From the NCBI RefSeq assembly GCF_000949475.1, contig NZ_JRHC01000008.1:62001-126000 (forward strand): a stretch of 64,000 nt of DNA, in the 5' to 3' direction. Positions 9,782 to 24,232 of this stretch are shown one piece after another (positions within the stretch are counted from its first letter, which is position 1; the number at the start of each line of letters is the position of its first letter). Origin of the DNA: Draconibacterium sediminis (lineage in GTDB: Bacteria; Bacteroidota; Bacteroidia; Bacteroidales; Prolixibacteraceae). A model generated the notes under the pieces. The model had not been told where the DNA came from and did not search any database. It worked only from the letters and a program-made list of their open reading frames with translations. A program made the position numbers and the translations under genes.

Positions 9782-10459
9782 ATGGAATTAAACGAGCTTA
9801 AAAAAACATGGAGCAAAATAACCCCCTCCAAAGAACTGGACGAAAACCAGTTGAACACCATGCTCAGCAAACGAACCAAGAACCTCATCGAACGAATCGA
9901 CCGTAATATCCGTATTGGATTTATTATTCTTCTGGGGCTGATTGTTTTGTTCACGCTTGATGATTTTATCTTGTCACCTGAAACCATAGAAAAACATTAC
10001 AGCGATCTGCCCATACCCAATTGGGTACTTTTTATGGGCGTTTTTGGCAATGTGCTTATTGTTACCACCTTTCTCTATTTTGTTATCAAGTATTACCGGG
10101 TGAAAAAACAATGCGATGTTGCTTGTGATTTGAAAGGCACGCTCAAAAAAATAATTGAAACACTATCACTGTATCAACGCCTCTTTTATCTGGCACTTGC
10201 CACATTGTTACTCAGTATGGCCTCAGCTTTTATTTCGGGGATGTTTATTGGAACCGAATACAATGCAGAAGCGCAAGGCATGCATTTATCCGACATTGAA
10301 ACCAGTAAGATCATTTTAACGGTCGGAATAACAGTGCTTCTTGTCGCTGTTTTCGGTGGTGCGATATTCCTTTTCCTTCGCTGGGGATTCCGCAAATTGT
10401 ATGGCAACTACATCAAAAAATTAAAAGCCACACTGCGCGAACTGGAAGAGTTGGATTAA
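9782..10459 (+). CDS. Sigma-factor-linked membrane protein, 225 aa
   Basis: No named family is recognised. The N-terminus is a soluble, charged stretch beginning MELNELKKTWSKI, followed by hydrophobic segments near residues 45-62, 80-105, 135-160 and 178-200. It follows the sigma factor gene by 5 bp. A protein of the same layout (LKxxW start, soluble head, several helices, charged tail) follows the paralogous sigma factor at 58.5 kb. I infer an anti-sigma-like or sensory role from this repeated coupling; no classical anti-sigma motif is visible. Confidence 0.75.
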   Translation: MELNELKKTWSKITPSKELDENQLNTMLSKRTKNLIERIDRNIRIGFIILLGLIVLFTLDDFILSPETIEKHYSDLPIPNWVLFMGVFGNVLIVTTFLYFVIKYYRVKKQCDVACDLKGTLKKIIETLSLYQRLFYLALATLLLSMASAFISGMFIGTEYNAEAQGMHLSDIETSKIILTVGITVLLVAVFGGAIFLFLRWGFRKLYGNYIKKLKATLRELEELD

Positions 10460-10682
10460 TTCTATAGCAAACCGGGCATGGGGCAAGTGCATGGAGCTTC
10501 CGGTATCTATTGTGAGGATCGAGTTGCGAGAATCAGGTATCCAGTATCAAGAATCCAGTATCCAGTATCCGGCATCTGTCAAACGAAGCACATTCTTCCA
10601 ACATATTGGCCGGTTTTATCGTTTATGTGTCGTAATTCAGGATCGACTTTTTATCTTTACGCCTCAAACTGAACATTAGATT
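10460..10682. repeat. Intergenic region with short tandem ATCCAGT repeats
   Basis: Around 10537-10572 the word ATCCAGTATC recurs four times in imperfect form. No gene is supported here. Short reiterated strings like this are common between Bacteroidota genes. Confidence 0.5.
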
Positions 10683-12065
10683 ATGACATTAATAAAATCG
10701 ATCTCGGGAATACGAGGTACCATTGGAGGTAAACCGGGCGAAGGTTTAAGCCCGCTCGACCTGGTAAAATTTACTGCGGCTTACGCCATCTGGGCAAAAG
10801 AAAAAGCAAACAAAGAAAAAATTACAGTAGTTGTTGGACGCGACGCACGGATTTCGGGAGAAATGGTGGCATCAATCGTTGTTTCAACCCTGTCGGGGAT
10901 GGGATGTAATGTGGTGAACATCGGACTGGCAACTACGCCAACCACCGAAATTGCCGTTACCGAAGAAAAAGCTGATGGCGGAATTATCCTCACGGCCAGT
11001 CATAACCCAAAACAATGGAATGCATTAAAACTACTGAATTCAGCAGGTGAATTTCTTGATGCTGAAGAAGGAGCAAAAGTACTGGCAATTGCCGATGCTG
11101 AAGATTTCAGCTTTGCCGAAGTGGATGATCTGGGAACAGTGGTGGAAAAAGACTATACCGATATTCATGTGCAACATGTACTGAACCTGGAATTGGTGGA
11201 TGTGGAAGCCATTAAAAAAGCCAACTTTTCGGTAGCTGTTGATGCCGTTAACTCGGTTGGTGGCGTTGCCATGCCGGCACTTTTTAAAGCGCTCGACATT
11301 AAGAATATTGTTGAAATAAACTGCGAACCAACCGGTCATTTTGCACATACACCGGAGCCAATTCCTGAAAACCTGGTGGAAACAGCGGAAATCATCAGCA
11401 AGAATAAAGTTGACGTGGGTTTTGTGGTCGATCCTGATGTTGACCGCCTTGTGATTATCAACGAAGATGGCAGTATGTTTAACGAAGAGTACACGCTGGT
11501 AGCCGTTGCCGATTATGTGTTGAGCCAAACTCCCGGAAACACGGTTTCAAACCTTTCATCGAGCCGTGCGCTGCGCGATGTGACAGAAAAACATGGCCAA
11601 AGCTACTCGGCAGGAATGGTTGGCGAAGTGAATGTTGTTGCCAAAATGCGCGAAACAAATGCCGTTATCGGTGGCGAAGGAAACGGCGGAATTATTTATC
11701 CGGCCAGCCACAGTGGTCGCGATGCCTTGGTTGGAGCGGCACTTTTCCTTTCTCATTTGGCCAAATCGGGCCTTAAATGTTCGGAACTGCGTAAAACCTA
11801 CCCCGATTATTTCATCTCAAAGAACAAAATTGAACTGACTCCGGAAATAGATGTGGATGGAATTCTTGTAAAAATGCAGGAAAAATATGCAAACGAAGAA
11901 GTTACAGCAACTGACGGAGTAAAAATCGATTTTGCTGAATCGTGGGTGCATTTACGAAAATCGAATACAGAACCGATCATCCGGATTTATGCCGAGGCAA
12001 AATCAAGTGCTGAAGCTGATAAACTGGCTCAGCAAATGATTGACGAAATGAAAAGCCTGTTATAA
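10683..12065 (+). CDS. glmM: Phosphoglucosamine mutase / phosphohexomutase
   Basis: A 460-residue alpha-D-phosphohexomutase. The phosphoserine loop TASHNP is at 104-109 (Ser106), the metal-binding DPDVDR is in the middle, the sugar-binding GGEGNGG is near 330, and the phosphate-binding RKSNTEP is near 425. The expected reaction is glucosamine-6-P to glucosamine-1-P, feeding UDP-GlcNAc for peptidoglycan and LPS. The Bacteroidota enzymes of this group are named GlmM, but phosphomannomutase/phosphoglucomutase activity cannot be excluded from sequence. Confidence 0.88.
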   Translation: MTLIKSISGIRGTIGGKPGEGLSPLDLVKFTAAYAIWAKEKANKEKITVVVGRDARISGEMVASIVVSTLSGMGCNVVNIGLATTPTTEIAVTEEKADGGIILTASHNPKQWNALKLLNSAGEFLDAEEGAKVLAIADAEDFSFAEVDDLGTVVEKDYTDIHVQHVLNLELVDVEAIKKANFSVAVDAVNSVGGVAMPALFKALDIKNIVEINCEPTGHFAHTPEPIPENLVETAEIISKNKVDVGFVVDPDVDRLVIINEDGSMFNEEYTLVAVADYVLSQTPGNTVSNLSSSRALRDVTEKHGQSYSAGMVGEVNVVAKMRETNAVIGGEGNGGIIYPASHSGRDALVGAALFLSHLAKSGLKCSELRKTYPDYFISKNKIELTPEIDVDGILVKMQEKYANEEVTATDGVKIDFAESWVHLRKSNTEPIIRIYAEAKSSAEADKLAQQMIDEMKSLL

Positions 12066-12083
12066 TTGGCATTACAGAAGGTT

Positions 12084-12199
12084 ATACCAATTGTTTTTCA
12101 GTGTGAGCCTTAAGTGAACACACTGGAATTAGAATGGTTAATACCGATTGAAAACGAAAATTGTATGAGATAAGGCTCATCCTGATTTCACATCGGTAT
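12084..12199 (+). mobile_element. ~116-bp MITE-like element, copy 1
   Basis: Bounded by imperfect terminal inverted repeats: ATACC-x-AT...TCAG..TGAGCCT at the left matches the reverse complement of the right end (18 of 27 positions). A second copy in opposite orientation, about three-quarters identical over its whole length, is at 31216-31330. It has no coding capacity. Confidence 0.65.
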
Positions 12200-12304
12200 T
12201 ACTCAAATGTTAAGCAATCCTTTGGTGTTGGGTGTAGAAATTAAGTTTTAGCTAATTTTATGTTGTAAAACATGTTTTAACTGTTCCCTTATTTAAAAAC
12301 GATC

Positions 12305-12312
12305 TACATTTG
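12305..12312 (+). promoter_or_regulatory. -7 promoter element for mgsA
   Basis: TACATTTG fits the Bacteroidota TAnnTTTG -7 consensus, 52 bp before the mgsA ATG. A -33 TTTG is not clear. Confidence 0.5.
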
Positions 12313-12363
12313 AACCGAAAACAATATTCAGTACAATAGTTTACTGAATACAAAACATGAATA

Positions 12364-12837
12364 ATGAAAAGAAAAAAGAATATAGCGATCGTAGCACACG
12401 ATAACCGCAAAAAAGATATTATGGAATGGGTGTCTTTCAACTGGAAAGAACTGGCCCAACACGACTTGATTTGTACCGGAACAACCGGGAAAATGGTTGA
12501 AGAGGCACTTGCCGAAAGCTGCCACAAACATGGCACCGTGCCGCCTACTGTTACCCGCCTGAAATCGGGGCCACTGGGTGGCGACCAGCAGTTGGGAGCA
12601 ATGATTTGCGAAGGCAATATCGATATGCTCATCTTCTTTTGGGATCCGATGCAACCACAACCACACGATGTTGACGTAAAAGCCTTGTTGCGTATCACGG
12701 TTTTATACAATATCCCAACAGCATCAAACCGTTCTACGGCCGACTTTATGGTGACATCCGAATTATTTCACGAGCAATACGATCCGATTATAAAAGATTA
12801 TCGCGAATATATTGCCCGCGACGTGAATATGGCATAA
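12364..12837 (+). CDS. mgsA: Methylglyoxal synthase
   Basis: A 157-residue enzyme that converts dihydroxyacetone phosphate to methylglyoxal and phosphate, a bypass of lower glycolysis used when phosphate is low or sugar phosphates accumulate. Family signatures are present: IAIVAHDNRKKD at the N-terminus, the phosphate-binding TGTTG, RLKSGPLGGDQQ, FFWDPMQPQPHDVDVKALLR with the catalytic Asp and His, and NIPTASNRSTADF. The length is normal. It is transcribed alone behind a TACATTTG promoter element. Confidence 0.95.
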   Translation: MKRKKNIAIVAHDNRKKDIMEWVSFNWKELAQHDLICTGTTGKMVEEALAESCHKHGTVPPTVTRLKSGPLGGDQQLGAMICEGNIDMLIFFWDPMQPQPHDVDVKALLRITVLYNIPTASNRSTADFMVTSELFHEQYDPIIKDYREYIARDVNMA

Positions 12838-15419: not shown

Positions 15420-15460
15420 GCAGGTGGCATAACCCTGCAGTTTAAAAATAAAAAAAATGC
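15420..15460 (+). ncRNA. Candidate preQ1-I riboswitch overlapping the start codon
   Basis: A 5-bp stem GCAGG (15420-15424) / CCTGC (15434-15438) closes a 9-nt loop TGGCATAAC, followed by an A-rich tail and the ATG at 15457. This resembles the type 2 preQ1-I aptamer (stem, loop ending in AAC before CC, A-rich tail). The loop GCAT is complementary to ATGC at 15457-15460, i.e. the start codon, so a pseudoknot could block initiation. The tail is longer (18 nt) than in the known aptamer. The downstream gene is the family expected to be controlled by preQ1. Confidence 0.55.
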
Positions 15461-16161
15461 AAAACGAAATCTTATGGCTGGCTATGTTGCTGGCAAATTT
15501 TCTGCTAATTATTTTAGCCTACCGTTTATTCGGGAAATGGGGCCTTGTAATGTGGATTCCCATCTCGGTAATTGTGGCCAACATTCAGGTAATACAAACC
15601 GTTGAGCTGTTTGGTCTGGTGGCCACGCTTGGTAACATTGTGTATGCCACCTCGTTTTTGGTGACCGATATTCTGTCGGAGAACTACGGAAAAGAGGAAG
15701 CTAAAAAAGCCGTTTGGATCGGGTTCTTTAGCTTGATATCAATGACTTTGCTGATGAACCTGGCACTGGAATTTCTGCCACTGGAAGGTGACGAATTTGC
15801 AGGAATAAGCCATGAAGCTACCAGCACCATTTTTAGCCTGATGCCGCGTATTGCCATTGCAAGTTTAGCTGCCTATCTATTGTCTCAGCGCCATGATGTG
15901 TGGGCTTATCATTTCTGGAAAAAACGTTTTTCGAAAGACCATCAGATCTGGTTGCGCAACAACCTCAGCACAATGGTTTCGCAACTGATAGACAGCGTAG
16001 TATTTGTTGCCATTGCCTTTTGGGGCGTTTACGAATGGCCGGTGCTGATTGAAATTCTGCTTACCACCTATTTCCTGAAATGGATTGTTGCAGCTGCCGA
16101 TACACCGTTTGTCTACTGGGGAAAGAAAATTTACAAAAGCAATCGTTTTTGGATGGAATAG
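15457..16161 (+). CDS. Queuosine precursor transporter (YhhQ family)
   Basis: A 234-residue membrane protein with about six hydrophobic helices. Family landmarks are present: VATLGNIVYATSFLVTDILSENYGKEEAKKAVWIGF (helix 2-3 region), LRNNLSTMVSQLIDSVVFVAIAF and the terminal ADTPFVYW. YhhQ/QueT proteins import preQ0 or preQ1 for tRNA queuosine synthesis or salvage. The candidate preQ1 riboswitch in front supports this. No other queuosine gene is in the window. The gene is transcribed alone. Confidence 0.9.
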   Translation: MQNEILWLAMLLANFLLIILAYRLFGKWGLVMWIPISVIVANIQVIQTVELFGLVATLGNIVYATSFLVTDILSENYGKEEAKKAVWIGFFSLISMTLLMNLALEFLPLEGDEFAGISHEATSTIFSLMPRIAIASLAAYLLSQRHDVWAYHFWKKRFSKDHQIWLRNNLSTMVSQLIDSVVFVAIAFWGVYEWPVLIEILLTTYFLKWIVAAADTPFVYWGKKIYKSNRFWME

Positions 16162-16390
16162 GAAGAAAAGAAGAGTGAGAGTGTGCGATTTGAGACTGTG
16201 GGATAAATGAATTGATTAGCTGTAAGCTCAGAGATTAAACACTTAGCCACGCGAAAGGATTCGCGTGACAGCGGAGACAAATAATCAGCTTCCATCTGTG
16301 AAACTTCACTGAAATAACTACTCCTCAGATCAAGAAATGCCTATAACGATGATACCGGTAATAATAAGAAAATAATTACCTAATATTGAA
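16162..16390. repeat. Intergenic region bearing a REP-like 30-mer at the island edge
   Basis: 16245-16274 reads AGCCACGCGAA-AGGA-TTCGCGTGACAGCGG, a hairpin with CACGCGAA/TTCGCGTG arms. Related units lie at 22375-22404 (inverted), 22428-22457 and 22628-22657. It marks the junction between moderate-G+C DNA and the AT-rich island. No gene is seen here. Confidence 0.65.
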
Positions 16391-16759
16391 TCAAGCTGTT
16401 TCCATCATGCATGATTGACCACCAATCGATTTAATTTTATCTTTTTCTTTAATAAAAGCAACAAGATTATTTTTAGTCAATGATTGATTTAAATAATAAG
16501 CTATTGCATCATTTTCAATATTGTTAAAAATAAGATGCATTTTATAGCTTGTTTTAAAATTTTCAAGTAATCTAATAATTACATTATTTATAAATGAATA
16601 ATCAATTGATTGAATTCCTTCAAAATCCAACTCAATATCATTGTTTTCAATATCTATCTCTTTAATATAGTTAATTAGGTCTTCATATACATCTATGCTA
16701 TCAACGTCTCCCCATAAAATTCTTTTATTGAATTTCTGTTTAATTTTGTAGTTGTTCAT
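16391..16759 (-). CDS. STAS-like (DUF4325-type) protein
   Basis: A 122-residue protein with the pattern of STAS-like DUF4325 domains: a strand IELDFEGIQSIDYSFINNVIIRLLENF near the centre, then MHLIFNNIEND and a C-terminal helix. These domains resemble anti-sigma-factor antagonists and are often found beside ATPases or methylases in accessory regions. It starts 7 bp after the methyltransferase stop, so the two are probably co-translated. DNA is strongly AT-rich relative to the surrounding genes. Function is not established. Confidence 0.72.
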   Translation of the reverse strand: MNNYKIKQKFNKRILWGDVDSIDVYEDLINYIKEIDIENNDIELDFEGIQSIDYSFINNVIIRLLENFKTSYKMHLIFNNIENDAIAYYLNQSLTKNNLVAFIKEKDKIKSIGGQSCMMETA

Positions 16760-16766
16760 TTGAATA

Positions 16767-18572
16767 TTATTTAATTATTTGTACTGAAATAATGGTTCTA
16801 TTTAATGCATAATTACTTTTCCAATAATAGACATTTTTTAAATGATCTGAAGTAAGCAATATATCATGCATTATAAAATTTACTTTTCTTCTTTTTGCTA
16901 CAATGTTTACGATATCTAATATATCTTCCGTAAATAGTAAATCTCTTGTTCTTCCTGTTTTGACTTTATCCAATGCGCAAAAGACTAAATAACCTCCAGA
17001 TTTAAGCCAAGTTATTGACTTGTCTATAAGTGATGAGTATATATCTCTAACTTCATTCATTTCTAGTCCTTCACCATATCCATATGGAGGATCTGTGACG
17101 ACTGCATTTATACTCGATTCTTCAATTCCATAAGATTCAATATTCCCACAGATGTTATTTTTCAAGAAAATGGGATAATCAGTTCTGAAGCAATTGTTGA
17201 TATAACCAACTCTTTTTGATGTATAATAACTGTCGGTGAAGTATTTTTTGTTGTTATTATCAAAACTCACAATAGGTTCTCCTGTTATTGCAAACTCATT
17301 TTCAAATAATTCAAGTTGTTTGCCAAACATTGAAAAACCGGGTTCGTATTTGTCTTCTTGAAAAGGTCTGATATAATTATTAACAAAGTCTCTCTGACCC
17401 TCTACCCCAAGTTCTGCTCCTCGAAGATTTTCCATTGAGTATCTTCTAAGAATATAATAATAAAGCCTTTCACTCAAAGATTTAATTCTATCATTAACAT
17501 CTCCGGTAGTTTCAGGTAAACCCTGAGCGTTTAATTTTATATTTTCAGGTATTAAAGCTTGAAATTGTTTTGTTAGAGTGACATTATTTAAATGTTCAGT
17601 AATTTCACCTATAATTGAGTTGAAATTTTGTGCACCATTACAGAAAAAATCATAATTATCTTTTGCTCCATTAGTTCCAAATAAATCACTAGCAATTACC
17701 TTGCATCCCATCTGAGAGGCCTCAATGGCTAACGTGCCAGTATGACAAAAAGGATCAAGTACAATAGAATCTTTTTCAACCTTAGCAATATTTAGCATTG
17801 CATTCATTAAACGATGTGGAGTTGTGAAAATCCCTGCCCAAAATGGTTTTAACTCTTTTAAATTATCCATTTCGTGGATAGGATTATCTTTTTTATATTC
17901 ACTTAAATAACAAACACCATAATCAATTACGTTTCTATCTTCATAAAGTTCAGATAGAGCAGAATAATCATGAACTTTACCTTTTTCAAGAAAAATAAAT
18001 ATGTGTTCTTCATTTGGTTTTAACTTTAAAGATGATTCTACTGAATTAAGTTTTGATTGTAGATTATTTGAGGCGATATTAAATGAATCATTACCTATAT
18101 GGTACCTCCTGTCATCAATTAGCAGGGAATCTAACTTATTATTAACTTCATTTTCAGTTTTTTTATAAAAAACTGTATTGTGCCACTCATTTTCTTTTTT
18201 ACAAAACGATGTTACATCTTCAAGAATATCATCAATTTGAAGGTCGGCCCATTTTGATATAAATAAAAACTTACCACATGAATGAATATATCCAGACCGT
18301 CTAATTATATCTTTTATATCAAATTTGAAACTACTTAATACTATAGCACTTTGGGATAAAAAAATTATATAGGTGAAGTCTTTGTTTTCGTCTACAAATA
18401 TCTGATTATTAAATGAAATTCTATTTCCTTCAGATGTAAGTTCCTCAACTGTTTTTGTTCGTATTAAAACATCTTTTTGTTGAAGTTCTAATAAAGAAAT
18501 TAACTCTCCTTTCGAAATATCTGTTTTTTCAAATGATCTATTAAAGACAAAAAGATAACTGTTGTGTGCCAT
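16767..18572 (-). CDS. Large DPPY methyltransferase with a ~150-residue insertion
   Basis: A 601-residue protein. Residues 1-235 have no recognised domain, possibly THUMP- or target-binding. A SAM-binding motif I, LDPFCHTGT (272-280), follows KPFWAGIFTTPHRLMNAMLNIA, as in Trm11/UPF0020-type RNA methyltransferases. The catalytic TDPPYGYGEG is at 493-502, about 215 residues after motif I; in ordinary Trm11-like enzymes the gap is far shorter, so about 310-460 is an insertion. The motifs fit an N-methyltransferase on tRNA, DNA or another nucleic acid. It is AT-rich and next to the STAS-like gene. Target unknown. Confidence 0.8.
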   Translation of the reverse strand: MAHNSYLFVFNRSFEKTDISKGELISLLELQQKDVLIRTKTVEELTSEGNRISFNNQIFVDENKDFTYIIFLSQSAIVLSSFKFDIKDIIRRSGYIHSCGKFLFISKWADLQIDDILEDVTSFCKKENEWHNTVFYKKTENEVNNKLDSLLIDDRRYHIGNDSFNIASNNLQSKLNSVESSLKLKPNEEHIFIFLEKGKVHDYSALSELYEDRNVIDYGVCYLSEYKKDNPIHEMDNLKELKPFWAGIFTTPHRLMNAMLNIAKVEKDSIVLDPFCHTGTLAIEASQMGCKVIASDLFGTNGAKDNYDFFCNGAQNFNSIIGEITEHLNNVTLTKQFQALIPENIKLNAQGLPETTGDVNDRIKSLSERLYYYILRRYSMENLRGAELGVEGQRDFVNNYIRPFQEDKYEPGFSMFGKQLELFENEFAITGEPIVSFDNNNKKYFTDSYYTSKRVGYINNCFRTDYPIFLKNNICGNIESYGIEESSINAVVTDPPYGYGEGLEMNEVRDIYSSLIDKSITWLKSGGYLVFCALDKVKTGRTRDLLFTEDILDIVNIVAKRRKVNFIMHDILLTSDHLKNVYYWKSNYALNRTIISVQIIK

Positions 18573-18734
18573 GACCTGTTATTGATGCTATTAAAATAAG
18601 AAAAATATATTTTAATCATGATTACACAGCAATATTCTTACTAACAAAAGGACTTATAATGAAAAATTAAATGTCTTACATGTTTATAAAGTATTTTGAA
18701 TAAGTGCGCACAGGTATACGTAATAACAATTTTG
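18573..18734. promoter_or_regulatory. AT-rich spacer between the two island gene pairs
   Basis: 162 bp without an open frame between the methyltransferase start and the DUF5131 stop. It may hold a promoter for the methyltransferase-STAS pair, but no clear TAnnTTTG on the minus strand was identified. Confidence 0.3.
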
Positions 18735-19493
18735 TCATGCTAACTCCACGTCGAAATGTTTTTCAATAACCTCAGGATAATTCTGCCAAATCTTTCCATT
18801 CAGCTCTTTACCATTCTCCTTTTTATTACGTTTAACTTTATCAGCCCCCCAAGTTCCCCATTGTTTAAAGAAGAAAGCAACATCATTAGCATCACATTGC
18901 TTTTTAACATTCTCCACCCAACTTTTATCCATTGGTCTTGCTTGATTTCCACTTTCACCACCGACAATAACCCAATTAATATTAGTCAAATCTATTTCTC
19001 CTAAATCTTCGAGAAGTGGTTCAACCGATAAGAACAATACTGATGCATTTAGGTGTCGAAGTTTGTCAATACGTGGAATTCCATCAAACTTATTCTCCAC
19101 AGTAACACCTAACCATACATTTTTGGGAATTTCCCTTTGAGATAGATATTCATACATTCTATCAGCCCTTTTAGTTAGCACTTGATAAGTATGATGAGGT
19201 GTTTGCTTTATAACAGAAAATATCTTGTCCAAATAATCCAACGGCATCTTTTCGTGAAAAATATCACTCATTGAGTTTACAAAATAAACTGTAGGCTTCT
19301 TCTTTTTTAAAGGTTCATTTAATCGAGATGGAACGATATTAAATCTAAATCCATTTTCGTAACCAACAGTTCCAATGGCCTTAAGCCTACGAGCCATAGA
19401 CTCAGCATAACAATGTTTACAACCTGCCGAAATTTTTGTACAACCAGAAGATGGATTCCAAGTTGCTTCTGTCCATTCAATTTTTGATGCCAT
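18735..19493 (-). CDS. Three-Cys radical-SAM-like protein, DUF5131 (phage Gp37/Gp68 family)
   Basis: A 252-residue protein beginning SKIEWTEATWNPSSGCTKIS. Cys18, Cys25 and Cys28 make a C-x6-C-x2-C cluster in SGC...AGCKHCYAE, characteristic of DUF5131/Gp37-Gp68 proteins and reminiscent of radical SAM [4Fe-4S] sites. Later motifs, FVNSMSDIFHEKMP, YQVLTKRADRMYEYL, WLGVTVEN and WVIVGGESGNQARPMD, also match the family. It begins 2 bp after the TcmP stop. Members occur on phages and in bacteria next to TcmP, which is the case here. The chemistry is not established. Confidence 0.88.
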   Translation of the reverse strand: MASKIEWTEATWNPSSGCTKISAGCKHCYAESMARRLKAIGTVGYENGFRFNIVPSRLNEPLKKKKPTVYFVNSMSDIFHEKMPLDYLDKIFSVIKQTPHHTYQVLTKRADRMYEYLSQREIPKNVWLGVTVENKFDGIPRIDKLRHLNASVLFLSVEPLLEDLGEIDLTNINWVIVGGESGNQARPMDKSWVENVKKQCDANDVAFFFKQWGTWGADKVKRNKKENGKELNGKIWQNYPEVIEKHFDVELA

Positions 19494-19495
19494 GA

Positions 19496-20623
19496 TTATT
19501 TTAGCTTTTCGGGTACTAATTTATGAATATTACTACTAGCAATACGAAATTCTTTATTGATTGTTCTCTGCTTTCTTAGTTCACGCAAAACTTCATTGGC
19601 GTGTTTCGGTAAACACCCCATTTCAAACGTCCATCGATATACCTCTACATTTGTCTCCAAGTCATTACTAAGAACTTTATTTTTAAGTTCATTTTGAAAG
19701 ACTTGAATTTTATTTGAAATATCATGTTCGGCCCATAATGAAGGTTCGATTGGATTTATTTTCTCATTGTCGATATCATAGTTTGCATCCCCGGTGTTTT
19801 TGTTTATCCCCCAACAAATATTCAGAAACTTTTCTATACCTAAAAGATGGTTTGTTCCGAAAATCAATCCATAAATATTTGGTCCTTTTTTAATAGAAAA
19901 CGGTGCGAGGTAATATTCTGTTCCTCGAGGAATCAATTGTTTATAATAATTGAAAACCACACGATGACAATGGTGAGGTTTAGTTGGGTCAAAAGATTCT
20001 CGGTTTAATTTTAAATATGTTTGAAATTCGGGTTGTTCCGCAAACCTATTTGCAAACGATGAAGAAATAAAAAAAATAAAATCTGTTCTTTTTAAACTTA
20101 CTAATTGCTCAAAAATATCTTCAGTTATTTGTTTAATGCCAAACTGATCCAAAAACATGAAACGTGGAAGTTGTGCAGTATTTTGCATAAAAGGATACCA
20201 TTCACCAAACAATTGTTTAAAGTCCTTATTTTCCTCATATACCTTCAAAATACAATCTTTTGTTTTAGGACACATTTCTGAATTTTTACATTCCATTAGC
20301 TTCTCAGAAATATTTTGCTTTAATGCTTCATAACGCTTTTTATCAACTTCGTTAAATAGCACATTCAACCTTAAAGATTCGTCCTTTATGGTTTTACAAT
20401 ATGGGAACAGTTCTTCGAGCATTATTAACGGACTGCCATTAACTCCTTCTGAGTCCTTCCCCTCACCTGCAAACATGTCATAAAGCGAAATATCGGTCCA
20501 GTATTTCTGCCTTCTTTTCAAAAAAACAGGCAACCATTCTTGAAGATATTTATGAAGAATATATAGCTTGATTTGTGTGCCTTCATCAAATCCTTTGTTG
20601 AAAATATCGTTTGATTTTGCCAT
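19496..20623 (-). CDS. tcmP: Three-Cys-motif partner protein TcmP
   Basis: A 375-residue protein matching the TcmP (TIGR04474) family, which occurs as the partner of DUF5131 three-Cys proteins. It starts with a helix-rich segment GTQIKLYILHKYLQEWLP, then DMFAGEGKDSEGVNGSP (residues 49-65), which resembles a class I methyltransferase motif I, and LFNEVDKKRYEAL, like motif II. MFLDQFGIKQI and FFISSSFANRF follow. It lacks an obvious catalytic motif such as DPPY. TAAGTTTG on the minus strand at 20684-20691 may be its promoter. DNA is AT-rich, as is the whole island. Confidence 0.85.
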   Translation of the reverse strand: MAKSNDIFNKGFDEGTQIKLYILHKYLQEWLPVFLKRRQKYWTDISLYDMFAGEGKDSEGVNGSPLIMLEELFPYCKTIKDESLRLNVLFNEVDKKRYEALKQNISEKLMECKNSEMCPKTKDCILKVYEENKDFKQLFGEWYPFMQNTAQLPRFMFLDQFGIKQITEDIFEQLVSLKRTDFIFFISSSFANRFAEQPEFQTYLKLNRESFDPTKPHHCHRVVFNYYKQLIPRGTEYYLAPFSIKKGPNIYGLIFGTNHLLGIEKFLNICWGINKNTGDANYDIDNEKINPIEPSLWAEHDISNKIQVFQNELKNKVLSNDLETNVEVYRWTFEMGCLPKHANEVLRELRKQRTINKEFRIASSNIHKLVPEKLK

Positions 20624-20987
20624 TGGGAATCATTTTAGTTCTAATTTCTAGTCTTTAACGAAGCTCCAATTTAGCAATAAATTCAAACTTATGGTATTAT
20701 ACATAAATAATATGTTTCATAAATCTGTTTCATATTCTAGGTTGGTATATTCCCTCGCGTGTGGTTTATATCTTCCGTTCTCATTGTTAAGTATCATGAT
20801 TAACCGTAACGGAAGTGGGGCTAAAGCCCAACTTTGGAAGCATAATAACTAACCCCGGCATTAATGCCGGGGTTAAGCAAGCCCCTCAGAACCGGGCTTA
20901 AGCCCGTAAGCCTTACTAAAAGCGGGTTTCCGAAAGACTACGATAACACAAAAACACCTATCTAACTGATTACAAGACCTCCCCCGC
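20624..20987. repeat. Gene-free region with GGGCTAAAGCCC-type REP palindromes
   Basis: No gene is supported. The 20810-20935 stretch contains several palindromes: GGGGCTAAAGCCC, AACCCCGGCATTAATGCCGGGGTT (about 20853-20876) and CGGGCTTAAGCCCG. Similar strings recur near 22700-22775. They look like REP/BIME units on the island's other side. A TAAGTTTG box for tcmP lies at 20684-20691. Confidence 0.6.
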
Positions 20988-21281
20988 CACCAATTTGGTG
21001 TTTTCGCAGCCCTGCGAAAGCTTCAAAGTCACCAATTTGGTCGTTTCGTAGCGCTTTGCTACCATCAAATTATTCAATTTAGTGCTTTCGTAGGTGTTTG
21101 AAAGCTTCTCCGTCTTCACAAAAGTCCTTTTGTAGTGCTACAATGGCACTTTTGTCATCACAAAACTACTTTCGTAGTGCTACAACAGCGTTTTTGTCAC
21201 CACAAAACTACTTTCGTAGCTGTACAAAGGGGGTTTAGTCACCAATTTACTGCTGTCGTTGCCTTGCAATGGGACTTTAGC
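20988..21281 (+). repeat. Seven exact-length 42-bp tandem repeats with hairpin cores
   Basis: Units start at 20988, 21030, 21072, 21114, 21156, 21198 and 21240, each exactly 42 bp but diverged in sequence. Each carries a short inverted repeat in its middle, with different but still paired arms: TTCGCAG/CTGCGAA in unit 1, GTAGC/GCTAC in unit 2, TTGTAG/CTACAA in unit 4 and TTGC/GCAA in unit 7. The frame is open in units 4-7 (a 14-residue pattern HHKTTFVVLQ) but unit 3 has a stop, so coding of the whole array is unlikely. Confidence 0.8.
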
Positions 21282-21526: not shown

Positions 21527-22279
21527 ATGAATTTTATAAAATCAATCCCTTTAACGCGCTTGCGCAACAACGATTACTTTCAGTTTATGGCTGATGTAAA
21601 AAGTTTGATTGCGCAGGCCACCCCTGCAGCACTTAATGTGGAGGAAGAATCGGTAGACTTCGACAATAGTTTTACCGAACTGGACGAAGCAATAAATGTT
21701 GACCGGGGAAGTGTACTCACTGAAAAAGTTCAGGATGCCGACCACAGGCGCGATACTACCTGGACTGCACTAAACGAGCGGGTAAAAGCAACGCTTTTTA
21801 GCCCGATACCAGAAGAAGTTGAGGCTGCCAAACACATCGAACGGGTTTTTAATCTGTATGGAAACATCAGATACCTGTCGTTGAAGGAACAAACTGCAGC
21901 AGCAACCAACCTGAATAACGACCTGAAAGACCGAGATATGGCAGTGCATTGCCAAACCATTGGTATTATGCCGTGGGTTTTGGCGCACGAAACCGAAAAC
22001 AATACCGTTAACGATCTGCAAAACCAACGCGACAGCGAAAAAGCAAACAACAACGCCGCAAAAGTTAAAGAGGTGCGTTTGGCTTTCGAAGGGGTATACA
22101 AGGCATTGGTAAACCGTATTAATGCACTGGTTACTTTACGCATGGCAACTCCCGAAATCGAAAATTTTATATTAGAGGTAAATCAGAAGATTACAAATCT
22201 TGAGATTCAGCTTGCCGCCCGTCAGGGGCAATCTGCCAGCGGAGAAGAAGAATCGGCTGAAGCTACCGTAGAAGAATAA
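21527..22279 (+). CDS. DUF6261 family protein
   Basis: A 250-residue helical protein resembling the DUF6261 family of Bacteroidota: an N-terminal LTRLRNNDYFQFMADV motif, DADHRRDTTWTALNERVKA, then a series of helices ending in LEVNQKITNLEIQLAARQGQ. Acidic C-terminus. No signal peptide or catalytic motif. The function of the family is unknown. It follows the 42-bp repeat array by 245 bp and is followed by a terminator at 22306-22338. Confidence 0.8.
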   Translation: MNFIKSIPLTRLRNNDYFQFMADVKSLIAQATPAALNVEEESVDFDNSFTELDEAINVDRGSVLTEKVQDADHRRDTTWTALNERVKATLFSPIPEEVEAAKHIERVFNLYGNIRYLSLKEQTAAATNLNNDLKDRDMAVHCQTIGIMPWVLAHETENNTVNDLQNQRDSEKANNNAAKVKEVRLAFEGVYKALVNRINALVTLRMATPEIENFILEVNQKITNLEIQLAARQGQSASGEEESAEATVEE

Positions 22280-23053: not shown

Positions 23054-24232
23054 TCAACCACGTTGCTTTTTTACATGCACCGTAGCAAAAATGATGATCA
23101 TCATAAGCAAAGCCATAACTGCCCCCGACAGGAAACTGGCTTCCAGGCCGCCAAGTGCATAAAACACGCCTACCAGCAAGGGGCCAAAGGTTTGCCCGCC
23201 TCGCAACACCATGGAGTTTAACGACATAAAGGCCGCCCGCTCGTTTATTGCCGCGTAACCTACCAGCATATTTTGAATGGATGGAATGGTTATGCCGTGC
23301 CCGAAACCGAATACGATGACCGCCACGCCCAACATTAAATACGAATTGGCACCCAGCATAAGCAGCGAAGCCAGCATGTAAAATGCGCTTCCGATAATGA
23401 GCTGCCGTTTTTGCCCCAGCAAGCGGTTAAGGCGTGCCAGTTGCGAGCTCATAATGGCTGTGGTTACCGACATGAGCGACATCATTAAACCAATTCGCGA
23501 AGAATCGGCGCCCAGGCGCTTTTCCATCATCAGCGGGAAGTAGGTAAGGTACGAACCGTAAAGGATCAGGAAGAGGATAAAGTTAACGGCAAAAAGTCCC
23601 CAAACCGTGCGCTGATTAATGGTTTTCCAAACACGCCCAAAATACGACCGTAGTTTCGCCTTGTTCTTTGGCTCGGGATTATTCAGCCCTTTCATTACCC
23701 AAATGCCCAGCGGAATAGCCAGAATGGGCAAAGCAAAAATATACTGCCAGCCAAAAATGGCGATCACTCCGCCAAGGGCAGGGTACGATGCTGTGGCTAT
23801 ACTCAAAACACTGGCATTGTAGCCCATTACCGCCGTGCGCCGTTTCCCTTCGAAAAGATCGCCCACAAGGGTAATATTCATACTCGATAATGAACTGGCT
23901 CCAACCCCCTGAACAAAACGAAGTGCCAGCAATCCGTAAAATCCGGGCGCAAACATACAGGCAAAACCGGCAATTCCGAAGAGAAACAAAGAGGGCACCA
24001 ACACCACTTTCCGGCCATAACGATCGGCCAAAATGCCGGTAAACGGCGTAAGAAAAATACCGGGCAGCGTAAAGGCAACAATCAGCCAGCCCACCTGTTG
24101 CGGGCTGATACCGAAATAACGGATAATATCGGGGAAAGCGGGTGTAATGCTTGCCACGCCCATCATGGCAATAAGCGTTACCCCAAAAATGAAATAGAGA
24201 TTTTTATTGTGAAAGACAGATTTTTCGGTCAT
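23054..24232 (-). CDS. MFS transporter
   Basis: A 392-residue major facilitator with about 12 membrane helices. The family loop motif between helices 2 and 3 is present as GILADRYGRKVVLV, and LRFVQGVGASSLSSMNITLVGDLFEGKRRTAVMGYNAS follows a drug/H+ antiporter-like pattern. Substrate cannot be assigned. It probably exports small molecules across the inner membrane. The region upstream, 24233-24688, holds repeats and no gene. Confidence 0.88.
   Translation of the reverse strand: MTEKSVFHNKNLYFIFGVTLIAMMGVASITPAFPDIIRYFGISPQQVGWLIVAFTLPGIFLTPFTGILADRYGRKVVLVPSLFLFGIAGFACMFAPGFYGLLALRFVQGVGASSLSSMNITLVGDLFEGKRRTAVMGYNASVLSIATASYPALGGVIAIFGWQYIFALPILAIPLGIWVMKGLNNPEPKNKAKLRSYFGRVWKTINQRTVWGLFAVNFILFLILYGSYLTYFPLMMEKRLGADSSRIGLMMSLMSVTTAIMSSQLARLNRLLGQKRQLIIGSAFYMLASLLMLGANSYLMLGVAVIVFGFGHGITIPSIQNMLVGYAAINERAAFMSLNSMVLRGGQTFGPLLVGVFYALGGLEASFLSGAVMALLMMIIIFATVHVKKQRG

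What the first reader, a model, noticed from the sequence alone, without database searches (positions are those of the whole stretch)
16391..20623. AT-rich four-gene minus-strand island: TcmP, three-Cys DUF5131, inserted DPPY methyltransferase, STAS-like
Seen: four genes on one strand with sharply lower G+C than both sides, bounded by REP-like palindromes (16245-16274 and 20810-20935). The TcmP and DUF5131 genes are 2 bp apart and the methyltransferase and STAS-like genes 7 bp apart. Known: TcmP (TIGR04474) and Gp37/Gp68 DUF5131 occur as partners, some on phages. Inference: the four form a transferred module, perhaps modifying nucleic acid (a methyltransferase, a three-Cys radical-SAM-like protein and a SAM-binding-fold protein) and acting as defence, anti-defence or RNA/DNA modification. 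I know of no description of this four-gene combination.
Basis: partly seen in the sequence, partly recalled or inferred. Interest (0 to 1): 0.78.

Follow-up and report, generated by a model that had tools for sequence, protein, structure and literature searches.

The report
Two-unit nucleic-acid-modification cassette in hotspot
A low-G+C insert in a bacterial genome joins a known candidate phage-defence gene pair to a very rare methyltransferase pair, and one distantly related genome shows a similar partnership beside a known phage-defence system, so the combination may well be functional rather than accidental.

Summary
In detail: four minus-strand genes, 30.4% G+C against 44-46% in the flanks, gaps of 2 and 7 bp, palindromes on both sides. 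The interval is a cargo hotspot: relatives carry other genes there. It consists of two units. Unit 1, TcmP-DUF5131, is already catalogued as PADLOC candidate defence PDC-M30; in its order it often lies beside restriction-modification genes, and it travels without the other two genes (same slot in one relative; 0 of 40 other DUF5131 loci have them). New here: DUF5131 is the conserved half (mean 60% identity) and TcmP the variable half (26%), and TcmP models as an RlmJ/Trm1-like methyltransferase fold. Unit 2, a 601-aa methyltransferase with a STAS-like partner, was found only once more, in a Bacteroidales MAG, 366 bp from a different TcmP plus radical-SAM pair at the end of a BREX operon. Random placement would give that adjacency about 1e-4 of the time; defence-island clustering makes it likelier. 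I read it as a composite nucleic-acid-modification defence cassette of two loosely coupled units. The substrate (RNA favoured over DNA) and any defence activity are not shown, and the four-gene set is not obligate. Novelty: new variant of a known candidate kind.

The parts
16391..16759 (-). STAS-like (DUF4325-like) protein, 122 aa, second gene of unit 2
   Evidence: Pfam E 7.1e-5, just under cut-off; 39% identical to the G102 copy, which overlaps its methyltransferase gene by 4 nt
16767..18572 (-). 601-aa SAM methyltransferase, motif I DPFCHTGT (273-280) then DPPYGYGEG (494-502) about 220 residues later; unit 2
   Evidence: UPF0020 E 1.4e-12, TIGR01177 E 3.9e-20 (72 bits of 316 needed); best PDB profile match an archaeal tRNA methyltransferase, E 2e-4; 54% identical copy in G102
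18573..18734 (.). 162-bp intergenic gap between unit 2 and unit 1
   Evidence: homology of the pair with G034 begins at 18754
18735..19493 (-). DUF5131, radical-SAM-like three-Cys protein (C18-x6-C25-x2-C28, GGES 178-181); unit 1
   Evidence: Pfam E 2.1e-106; PADLOC PDC-M30B E 5.3e-116; the three Cys invariant in 26 of 26 aligned
19496..20623 (-). TcmP, methyltransferase-fold protein (D49-x-F-x-G-x-G, LDQFG 158-162) with a weak C-terminal wHTH match; unit 1
   Evidence: TIGR04474 E 5.1e-44; PADLOC PDC-M30A E 7.2e-135; model pLDDT 88, VIA Z 16.6 to a DUF519 protein and 16.0-16.4 to RlmJ; wHTH E 4.6e-5, under cut-off
16162..20866 (.). variable interval between conserved flanks; relative G009 (flanks 93-96% identical) has 1,053 bp with an outer-membrane barrel gene instead
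16248..16267 (.). left palindrome
20805..20940 (.). right dispersed palindromic repeat, with perfect 26-bp palindrome 20850-20875 (also terminator-like for the minus strand)
15457..16161 (+). left conserved flank, Vut_1 transporter gene
   Evidence: full-length matches at 73-100% identity in 32 of 37 genus genomes, own included
23054..24232 (-). right conserved flank, MFS-type transporter gene (name from my reading of the sequence, not from a family search)
   Evidence: found downstream of Vut_1 in 11 of 18 relatives read

Best explanation
A horizontally acquired, two-unit nucleic-acid-modification defence cassette in a cargo hotspot. Unit 1 is TcmP-DUF5131 (PADLOC PDC-M30): TcmP, the fast-diverging half, is an RlmJ/Trm1-fold methyltransferase-like protein with a winged-helix tail that selects the target, and DUF5131, the conserved half, is a radical-SAM-like enzyme that performs the shared chemistry, perhaps on the base or methyl group that TcmP presents. 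Unit 2 is a methyltransferase whose STAS-like partner regulates or stabilises it, and which adds a second mark that complements unit 1, much as unit 1 is attached to R-M or BREX methyltransferases elsewhere. Shown here: anatomy, variable slot, separability, the conserved/variable asymmetry, a predicted TcmP fold, recurrence of unit 2 beside a different TcmP/radical-SAM pair. Inferred: catalysis, target choice by TcmP, STAS as regulator, RNA rather than DNA as substrate, and phage defence.
For: PADLOC PDC-M30A/B matches. Unit 1 near R-M genes in 14 of 40 DUF5131 loci (clusters; six cluster representatives or singles confirmed); 7 of 40 hold a listed N6_Mtase hit against 0.78 expected for a uniform spread, P 1.7e-5. 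Second unit 2 copy in G102: methyltransferase 10310-12193 and STAS 12190-12570, 366 bp from TcmP (TIGR04474 E 3.6e-49) with a radical-SAM partner (PF04055 E 5.6e-11), next to BrxL, PglZ, PglX, BrxC, BrxB, BrxA. TIGR04474 rings in only 6 of 58 sampled genomes of the order, G000 and G102 among them; expected adjacency under random placement 6e-5 to 9e-5. DUF5131 versus TcmP identity 60% versus 26% over 378 pairs of 28 loci. TcmP fold: a DUF519 protein and RlmJ Z 16.0-16.6, Trm1 Z 13.4-14.6. Motif residues intact in the window and G102 copies.
Against: Unit 2 is known from two loci only, one of them the starting point, so its link to unit 1 rests on one independent adjacency, and defence islands cluster genes. 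0 of 40 other DUF5131 loci and 0 of 80 viral loci have unit 2. TIGR04474 misses some TcmP genes, so the base rate is a lower bound. The units lie on one strand here but diverge in G102, and differ in GC3 (0.19 against 0.26-0.28). Neither methyltransferase meets a specific enzyme model; the 601-aa model failed (pLDDT 33). DNA methyltransferase groups also match its motif I (hhalign E 8.3e-14) and PADLOC's mad2 model, a DNA methyltransferase, matches at E 8.3e-12. Foldseek does not single out RlmJ or Trm1: histamine methyltransferase ties at E 1.3e-6 and TM-scores are low, 0.38 or less for the query among the first rows. Four of ten neighbours tested matched no PADLOC model at 1e-10. PDC-M30 itself is unvalidated (passages of PMC10855318).
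Confidence: 0.4

Rival explanations
1. Two unrelated mobile units landed side by side in a cargo hotspot; there is no joint function.
For: The slot carries other cargo in the genus relatives read; unit 1 alone sits in the same slot in G034; homology to G034 stops at 18754, at the edge of unit 2; GC3 differs between the units.
Against: The only other unit 2 copy found, in another family with a different TcmP and a different radical-SAM partner, is again adjacent, although TIGR04474 rings in only 4 of the other 56 sampled genomes.
Confidence: 0.27
2. DNA-based: the 601-aa enzyme is an orphan DNA methyltransferase and TcmP-DUF5131 is a general accessory of DNA-methylating defence (R-M, BREX), for example modifying or repairing DNA.
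For: R-M and BREX neighbours; N6_N4_Mtase E 3.1e-7; PADLOC mad2 E 8.3e-12 and several MTase_II matches; profile match over motif I and part of the insert to a DPFCGSGTT/SPPY methyltransferase group, E 1.4e-8, and over motif I to another, E 8.3e-14.
Against: Best NCBIfam and PDB matches are tRNA methyltransferase-like; TcmP fold nearest to RlmJ and Trm1 by VIA-align; no restriction nuclease among the four genes.
Confidence: 0.2
3. Counter-defence or superinfection exclusion cargo of phage origin: DUF5131 and TcmP are phage genes kept after transfer.
For: DUF5131 is common on viral contigs: 80 loci kept of 593 relatives, 73 with a matching ORF, 38 of these with TcmP; phrog_2045 E 9.8e-93.
Against: No phage structural or integrase gene among the ORFs of the interval and its tested neighbours; a third of the host loci read lie beside R-M genes; unit 2 was not found in viral contigs, phages or plasmids.
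Confidence: 0.1

Closest known systems
PADLOC PDC-M30 (phage defence candidate, TcmP + DUF5131)
   Same: Both proteins match its A and B models strongly; gene order tcmP then DUF5131, 2 bp apart
   Different: The PADLOC matches cover two genes; here a methyltransferase-STAS pair follows downstream on the same strand
RlmJ (23S rRNA A2030-N6 methyltransferase), DUF519 protein 2oo3, and Trm1 (tRNA G26)
   Same: Best folds for TcmP by VIA-align: 2oo3 Z 16.6, RlmJ Z 16.0-16.4, Trm1 Z 13.4-14.6
   Different: 11-13% identity; motif IV here is LDQFG, not the DPPY of RlmJ (recalled); extra C-terminal part with a weak wHTH match; RlmJ is not among Foldseek's first 50
Archaeal Trm11/TrmG10-type tRNA methyltransferases (TIGR01177)
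   Same: Motif order I then DPPYG, best PDB profile matches, E 3.9e-20 to TIGR01177
   Different: 72 bits against a 316-bit cut-off; about 220 residues between the motifs; residues 1-245 match no Pfam family
BREX type I with a TcmP/radical-SAM appendix (G102)
   Same: Same methyltransferase-STAS pair and a TcmP/three-Cys pair
   Different: No BREX gene among the four genes or tested neighbours of the window
Radical SAM mobile pair protein A (TIGR04471)
   Same: DUF5131 matches at E 3.7e-29
   Different: 102 bits of 355 needed

Membership tests
PDC-M30 (PADLOC) | TcmP-like A and DUF5131 B proteins adjacent | tested here: met
   E 7.2e-135 and 5.3e-116, 2 bp apart
PDC-M30 (PADLOC) | anti-phage activity | not testable with these tools
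   candidate by embedding only (passages of PMC10855318)
TcmP (TIGR04474) | score over the curated cut-off | tested here: met
   151.2 bits, cut-off 53
DUF5131 (PF07505) | score over the curated cut-off | tested here: met
   355.3 bits, cut-off 28.9
canonical radical SAM (PF04055) | match to PF04055 and CX3CX2C (recalled as canonical) | tested here: not met
   no PF04055 match for the window protein; spacing is CX6CX2C in 26 of 26. The G102 partner does match PF04055
TIGR01177 / Trm11-type tRNA methyltransferase | score over the curated cut-off | tested here: not met
   72.4 of 316.55 bits
TIGR01177 / Trm11-type tRNA methyltransferase | THUMP-type N-terminal domain (recalled) | tested here: inconclusive
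   no Pfam match for residues 1-245; structure model failed
RlmJ family | RlmJ fold | tested here: inconclusive
   E. coli RlmJ Z 16.4, 206 residues, rmsd 3.6, 11% identity; fold alike, membership not shown
DUF4325 (STAS-like) | score over the curated cut-off | tested here: inconclusive
   22.9 bits for a cut-off of 23; 24.1 in the six-frame search; G102 copy 20.8
restriction-modification system | restriction nuclease with the methyltransferase | tested here: not met
   none of the four proteins matches a nuclease model; the four neighbouring proteins tested by Pfam are not R-M. The rest of the 64-kb window was not scanned for R-M
BREX | PglZ, BrxC and PglX | tested here: not met
   not among the four genes or tested neighbours; present only in the G102 locus

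The most novel reading that the evidence does not exclude
The four genes form a modular RNA-modification immunity: a constant radical-SAM enzyme (DUF5131) is aimed by exchangeable RlmJ/Trm1-fold TcmP subunits, and a second Trm11-like methyltransferase under a STAS-type switch marks self RNA, so that infection-specific or unmarked RNA is chemically altered; the same logic is bolted onto BREX and R-M operons elsewhere.
Probability: 0.15. Interest if true: 0.85.

Novelty: new variant of a known kind. Interest (0 to 1): 0.52.

Why it matters
TcmP-DUF5131 is a widespread candidate defence pair for which my searches of the open library found no mechanism. Three results make it testable: TcmP is predicted to have an RlmJ/Trm1-type fold, DUF5131 is the constant and TcmP the variable half, and the pair keeps company with methylating defence systems. 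If the pair modifies RNA or DNA with a radical-SAM-like enzyme, it would be a modification chemistry not tied to phage defence in anything found here. The methyltransferase-STAS pair would be a methyltransferase companion that is neither R-M nor BREX.

Tried and rejected
A structure of the 601-aa methyltransferase was attempted with its two-sequence alignment and failed (pLDDT 33), so its N-terminal domain and insert stay unassigned. PDB sequence searches of TcmP, DUF5131 and the STAS protein gave only weak matches that I judge to be chance (best E 0.67, 0.35, 0.065 for single sequences; 0.2 and 0.054 for profiles). The STAS match to endonuclease VII (PHROG E 2.4e-4; PDB E 0.065) was judged chance. 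Phages and plasmids hold no relative of the methyltransferase at 1e-5; distant TcmP relatives are in 5 phage records (24-25% identity) and 8 plasmid records (22-39%).

More unit 2 copies were sought in samples of 149 relatives, 395 genomes of the phylum, 393 of the order and 395 of the class (the samples overlap and include the own genome), in one genome-contig scan with two exact peptide patterns and three viral scans. G137 was a 44-residue match; the 21 weak phylum hits are other methyltransferases as far as read (19 of the loci). Distant relatives are not excluded.

The idea that DUF4325 proteins generally accompany such methyltransferases was not borne out: of 21 DUF4325 hits in 18 of 149 genomes (own and G102 included) only those of the window and G102 have a relative of the 601-aa enzyme in the short stretches held. 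By my reading two others (L240, L246) lie beside type I R-M-like genes and one (L247) beside another methyltransferase-like ORF; several show an ATPase-DUF4325-PIN order. A prophage reading was rejected (no phage genes among the ORFs seen). Rfam (gathering threshold) and tRNA scans of the window were empty. Promoter and terminator scans were at shuffle level.

The 40 DUF5131 loci are a selection: 37 of the 92 other order genomes with a match, the best-scoring except G141 (on a cut contig), plus 3 of the 9 other genus genomes; G034 of that list was read separately, five were not read. Of ten neighbours tested, six are R-M proteins and four (of L115, L113, L143, L109) matched nothing at 1e-10.
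Full report
What is there. The window lies in contig C18 of a 6.0-Mb genome. No result names its organism; a genome of its order (G102) is the MAG titled 'Bacteroidales bacterium'.

The place is a hotspot. The left flank gene (Vut_1, 15457-16161) has full-length matches at 73-100% identity in 32 of 37 genus genomes, own included. I read the DNA downstream of it in 18 relatives; 11 of the 18 also show the right flank gene (23054-24232) within the stretch, six do not within about 12 kb, and one (L040) is only 2.6 kb long. G009, 93-96% identical on both sides, has 1,053 bp with an outer-membrane barrel gene (Pfam E 4.3e-10) where the window has 4,705 bp. In G005 (L031) about 1 kb with no ORF over 120 aa lies there. 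Among the eight other cargo proteins tested are a CheB/CheR protein and a histidine kinase, an alcohol dehydrogenase, a SPASM radical-SAM protein, a DUF5686 protein and an IS200-like transposase. One of the 18, G034, carries DUF5131 and TcmP, homologous from 18754 to 20730, and lacks the methyltransferase and STAS genes.

Two units. So the island divides at about 18754. Unit 1 is TcmP-DUF5131. Both proteins match PADLOC's phage defence candidate PDC-M30 very strongly. DUF5131 is over the cut-off in 89 of 344 genomes of the order and 9 of 37 of the genus. I read 40 DUF5131 loci: 37 of the 92 other order genomes with a match and 3 genus genomes (choice told under Tried and rejected). TcmP lies directly upstream on the same strand in 28 of 41 loci, the window included; several others are cut by contig ends. 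Neither gene of unit 2 occurs in any of the 40. In 14 of the 40, by clusters of similar proteins, an R-M gene lies within the stretch: type I in 9, type IIG-like in 3, type III in 2. Ten neighbours were tested against PADLOC: the six that stand for these R-M groups matched R-M models, four others matched nothing at 1e-10. An independent count with the N6_Mtase family gave 7 of 40 loci, from a list that was cut off, against 0.78 expected for hits spread evenly over the same genomes. Clustering in defence islands is not corrected for.

Constant and variable halves. Across 28 loci, 378 pairs, DUF5131 averages 60% identity and TcmP 26%; TcmP is the less similar in 98.7% of pairs, and in the 17 pairs where DUF5131 is 80% or more the median for TcmP is 22% (range 17-75%). 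Between the window and G034, DUF5131 is 96% identical in protein and 92% in DNA, TcmP 79% and 75%, with the step near the gene junction and dS 0.43 against 2.9 (saturated). This points to exchange of TcmP alleles over a conserved DUF5131. Four PADLOC PDC-M30A models matched the window's TcmP, one PDC-M30B model its DUF5131. That TcmP sets the target is inference.

TcmP. The model from 30 sequences is confident (pLDDT 88, pTM 0.88). VIA-align puts a DUF519 protein (Z 16.6) and E. coli RlmJ (Z 16.0-16.4) first, 200-207 residues, rmsd 3.0-3.6, then Trm1 (Z 13.4-14.6); other methyltransferases follow from Z 13.3. Foldseek is less clear: Trm1 is first at E 1.3e-6, histamine methyltransferase ties, query TM-scores are 0.39 or less, and RlmJ is not among the first 50. 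Motif I (D49, F51, G53, G55) is invariant and D159 nearly so; the window has LDQFG where many have LDPFG or LDPYG-like motifs, and one row lacks the Asp. A C-terminal wHTH match is under its cut-off.

DUF5131. C18, C25, C28 and GGE are invariant in 26 aligned copies. The spacing is CX6CX2C and Pfam's radical-SAM model does not match, but the family aligns with the G102 partner, which does match it (hhalign probability 78.5, E 1.7e-5), and it matches a radical-SAM mobile-pair model below cut-off. On viral contigs, 80 loci were kept of 593 relatives in a capped list; 73 have a matching ORF and 38 of these a TcmP.

Unit 2. The 601-aa methyltransferase has motif I and DPPYG in the order of Trm11-like enzymes (recalled); TIGR01177 and archaeal tRNA methyltransferases are its best NCBIfam and PDB matches, all far below membership. 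It also has DNA-methyltransferase matches: mad2 E 8.3e-12, N6_N4_Mtase E 3.1e-7, and two profile matches around motif I. The substrate is open. One other copy was found in all searches listed under Tried and rejected: G102, 54% identical, with the STAS gene overlapping by 4 nt and 39% identical. There, 366 bp away and divergent, lies a TcmP 18% identical to the window's, followed by a radical-SAM protein; on the other side lie BrxL, PglZ, PglX, and beyond an insertion BrxC, BrxB, BrxA.

Is that adjacency chance? TIGR04474 rings in 6 of 58 sampled genomes of the order; leaving out the two carriers, 4 genes in 193 Mb. Random placement would put one within 366 bp to 1 kb of the unit with expectation 6e-5 to 9e-5. 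Some genomes of the sample have DUF5131 but no TIGR04474 hit, so this is a lower bound, and clustering in defence islands could raise it by one or two orders of magnitude (my estimate). It is one independent event.

How it may work. I favour nucleic-acid modification: TcmP selects and perhaps methylates, DUF5131 performs radical-SAM-type chemistry, and the methyltransferase-STAS pair adds a regulated second mark. The nearest characterised relatives of both methyltransferase-like proteins are tRNA or rRNA enzymes, which makes RNA the better guess; the R-M and BREX company and the DNA-methyltransferase matches make DNA the main alternative. None of the chemistry is shown.

Literature, open library only. 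DUF5131: 0 papers. DUF5131 or TcmP: 393 papers, the 20 listed use TCMP in other senses. Three-Cys-motif partner: 3 papers. PDC-M30, Gp37/Gp68 wording, radical SAM mobile pair, DUF4325: 4 papers. Radical SAM with methyltransferase and phage defence terms: 7 papers, listing only. Phage defence candidate with PADLOC: 4 papers, listing only. STAS-like domain, anti-phage, methyltransferase (two of three): 10 of 279 seen as a listing, none of the ten holding the STAS term. Related names: 3 papers, 2 listed, neither on this. None gave a mechanism or this gene set. Passages seen: PMC10855318 has PDC-M30 in 32 P. aeruginosa strains of a 100-strain panel, 68.8% of them resistant; PMC12445080 lists a TcmP gene next to the Hna gene in a table; PMC12429752 lists TcmP in a prophage table; PMC11878078 counts two PDC-M30 in PA14. 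Most subscription papers and all preprints are missing from the library.

Verdict. New here are the two-unit anatomy, the second locus beside BREX, the constant/variable split and the predicted fold of TcmP.

Noticed in passing
L229, L233, L236, L237, L238, L246 (DUF4325 loci): Recurrent three-gene order by my reading: ATPase-like protein (about 260-320 aa; HATPase_c E 8.7e-6 in the one tested), DUF4325 (about 115 aa), PIN-like protein (about 180 aa; PF01850 E 7e-7 and 5e-8 in the two tested). It looks like an anti-sigma-type switch tied to an RNase-like protein.
   Followed up: partly
L227:972-11813 with L039:17139-19970 (G102): PglX of the BREX operon in G102 seems interrupted: about 10 kb with a phage-type integrase (PF00589 E 2.5e-29) lie between its 943-aa part and a 252-aa ORF next to BrxC, which I take for its N-terminal piece (no Pfam match).
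   Followed up: partly
L025:9359-9811: An IS200-like (Y1) transposase (E 1.8e-20) sits in the hotspot slot of a relative that also carries the dispersed palindromic repeat, as in REP-associated transposase systems (recalled).
   Followed up: partly
L106:7586-9558 and L130:9432-11495: Near two TcmP-DUF5131 pairs lies a protein with an HNH-like motif (my reading), followed in both by related SAM-methyltransferase-like proteins (cluster 9).
   Followed up: no
window 21527-22279: DUF6261 gene, present in the slot region of only some relatives (L024, L032, L033 of 18), so the variable zone extends beyond the island.
   Followed up: no
window 20988-21237: Tandem 42-nt repeats (two sets of three copies, 67-81% alike) between the island and DUF6261.
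   Followed up: no
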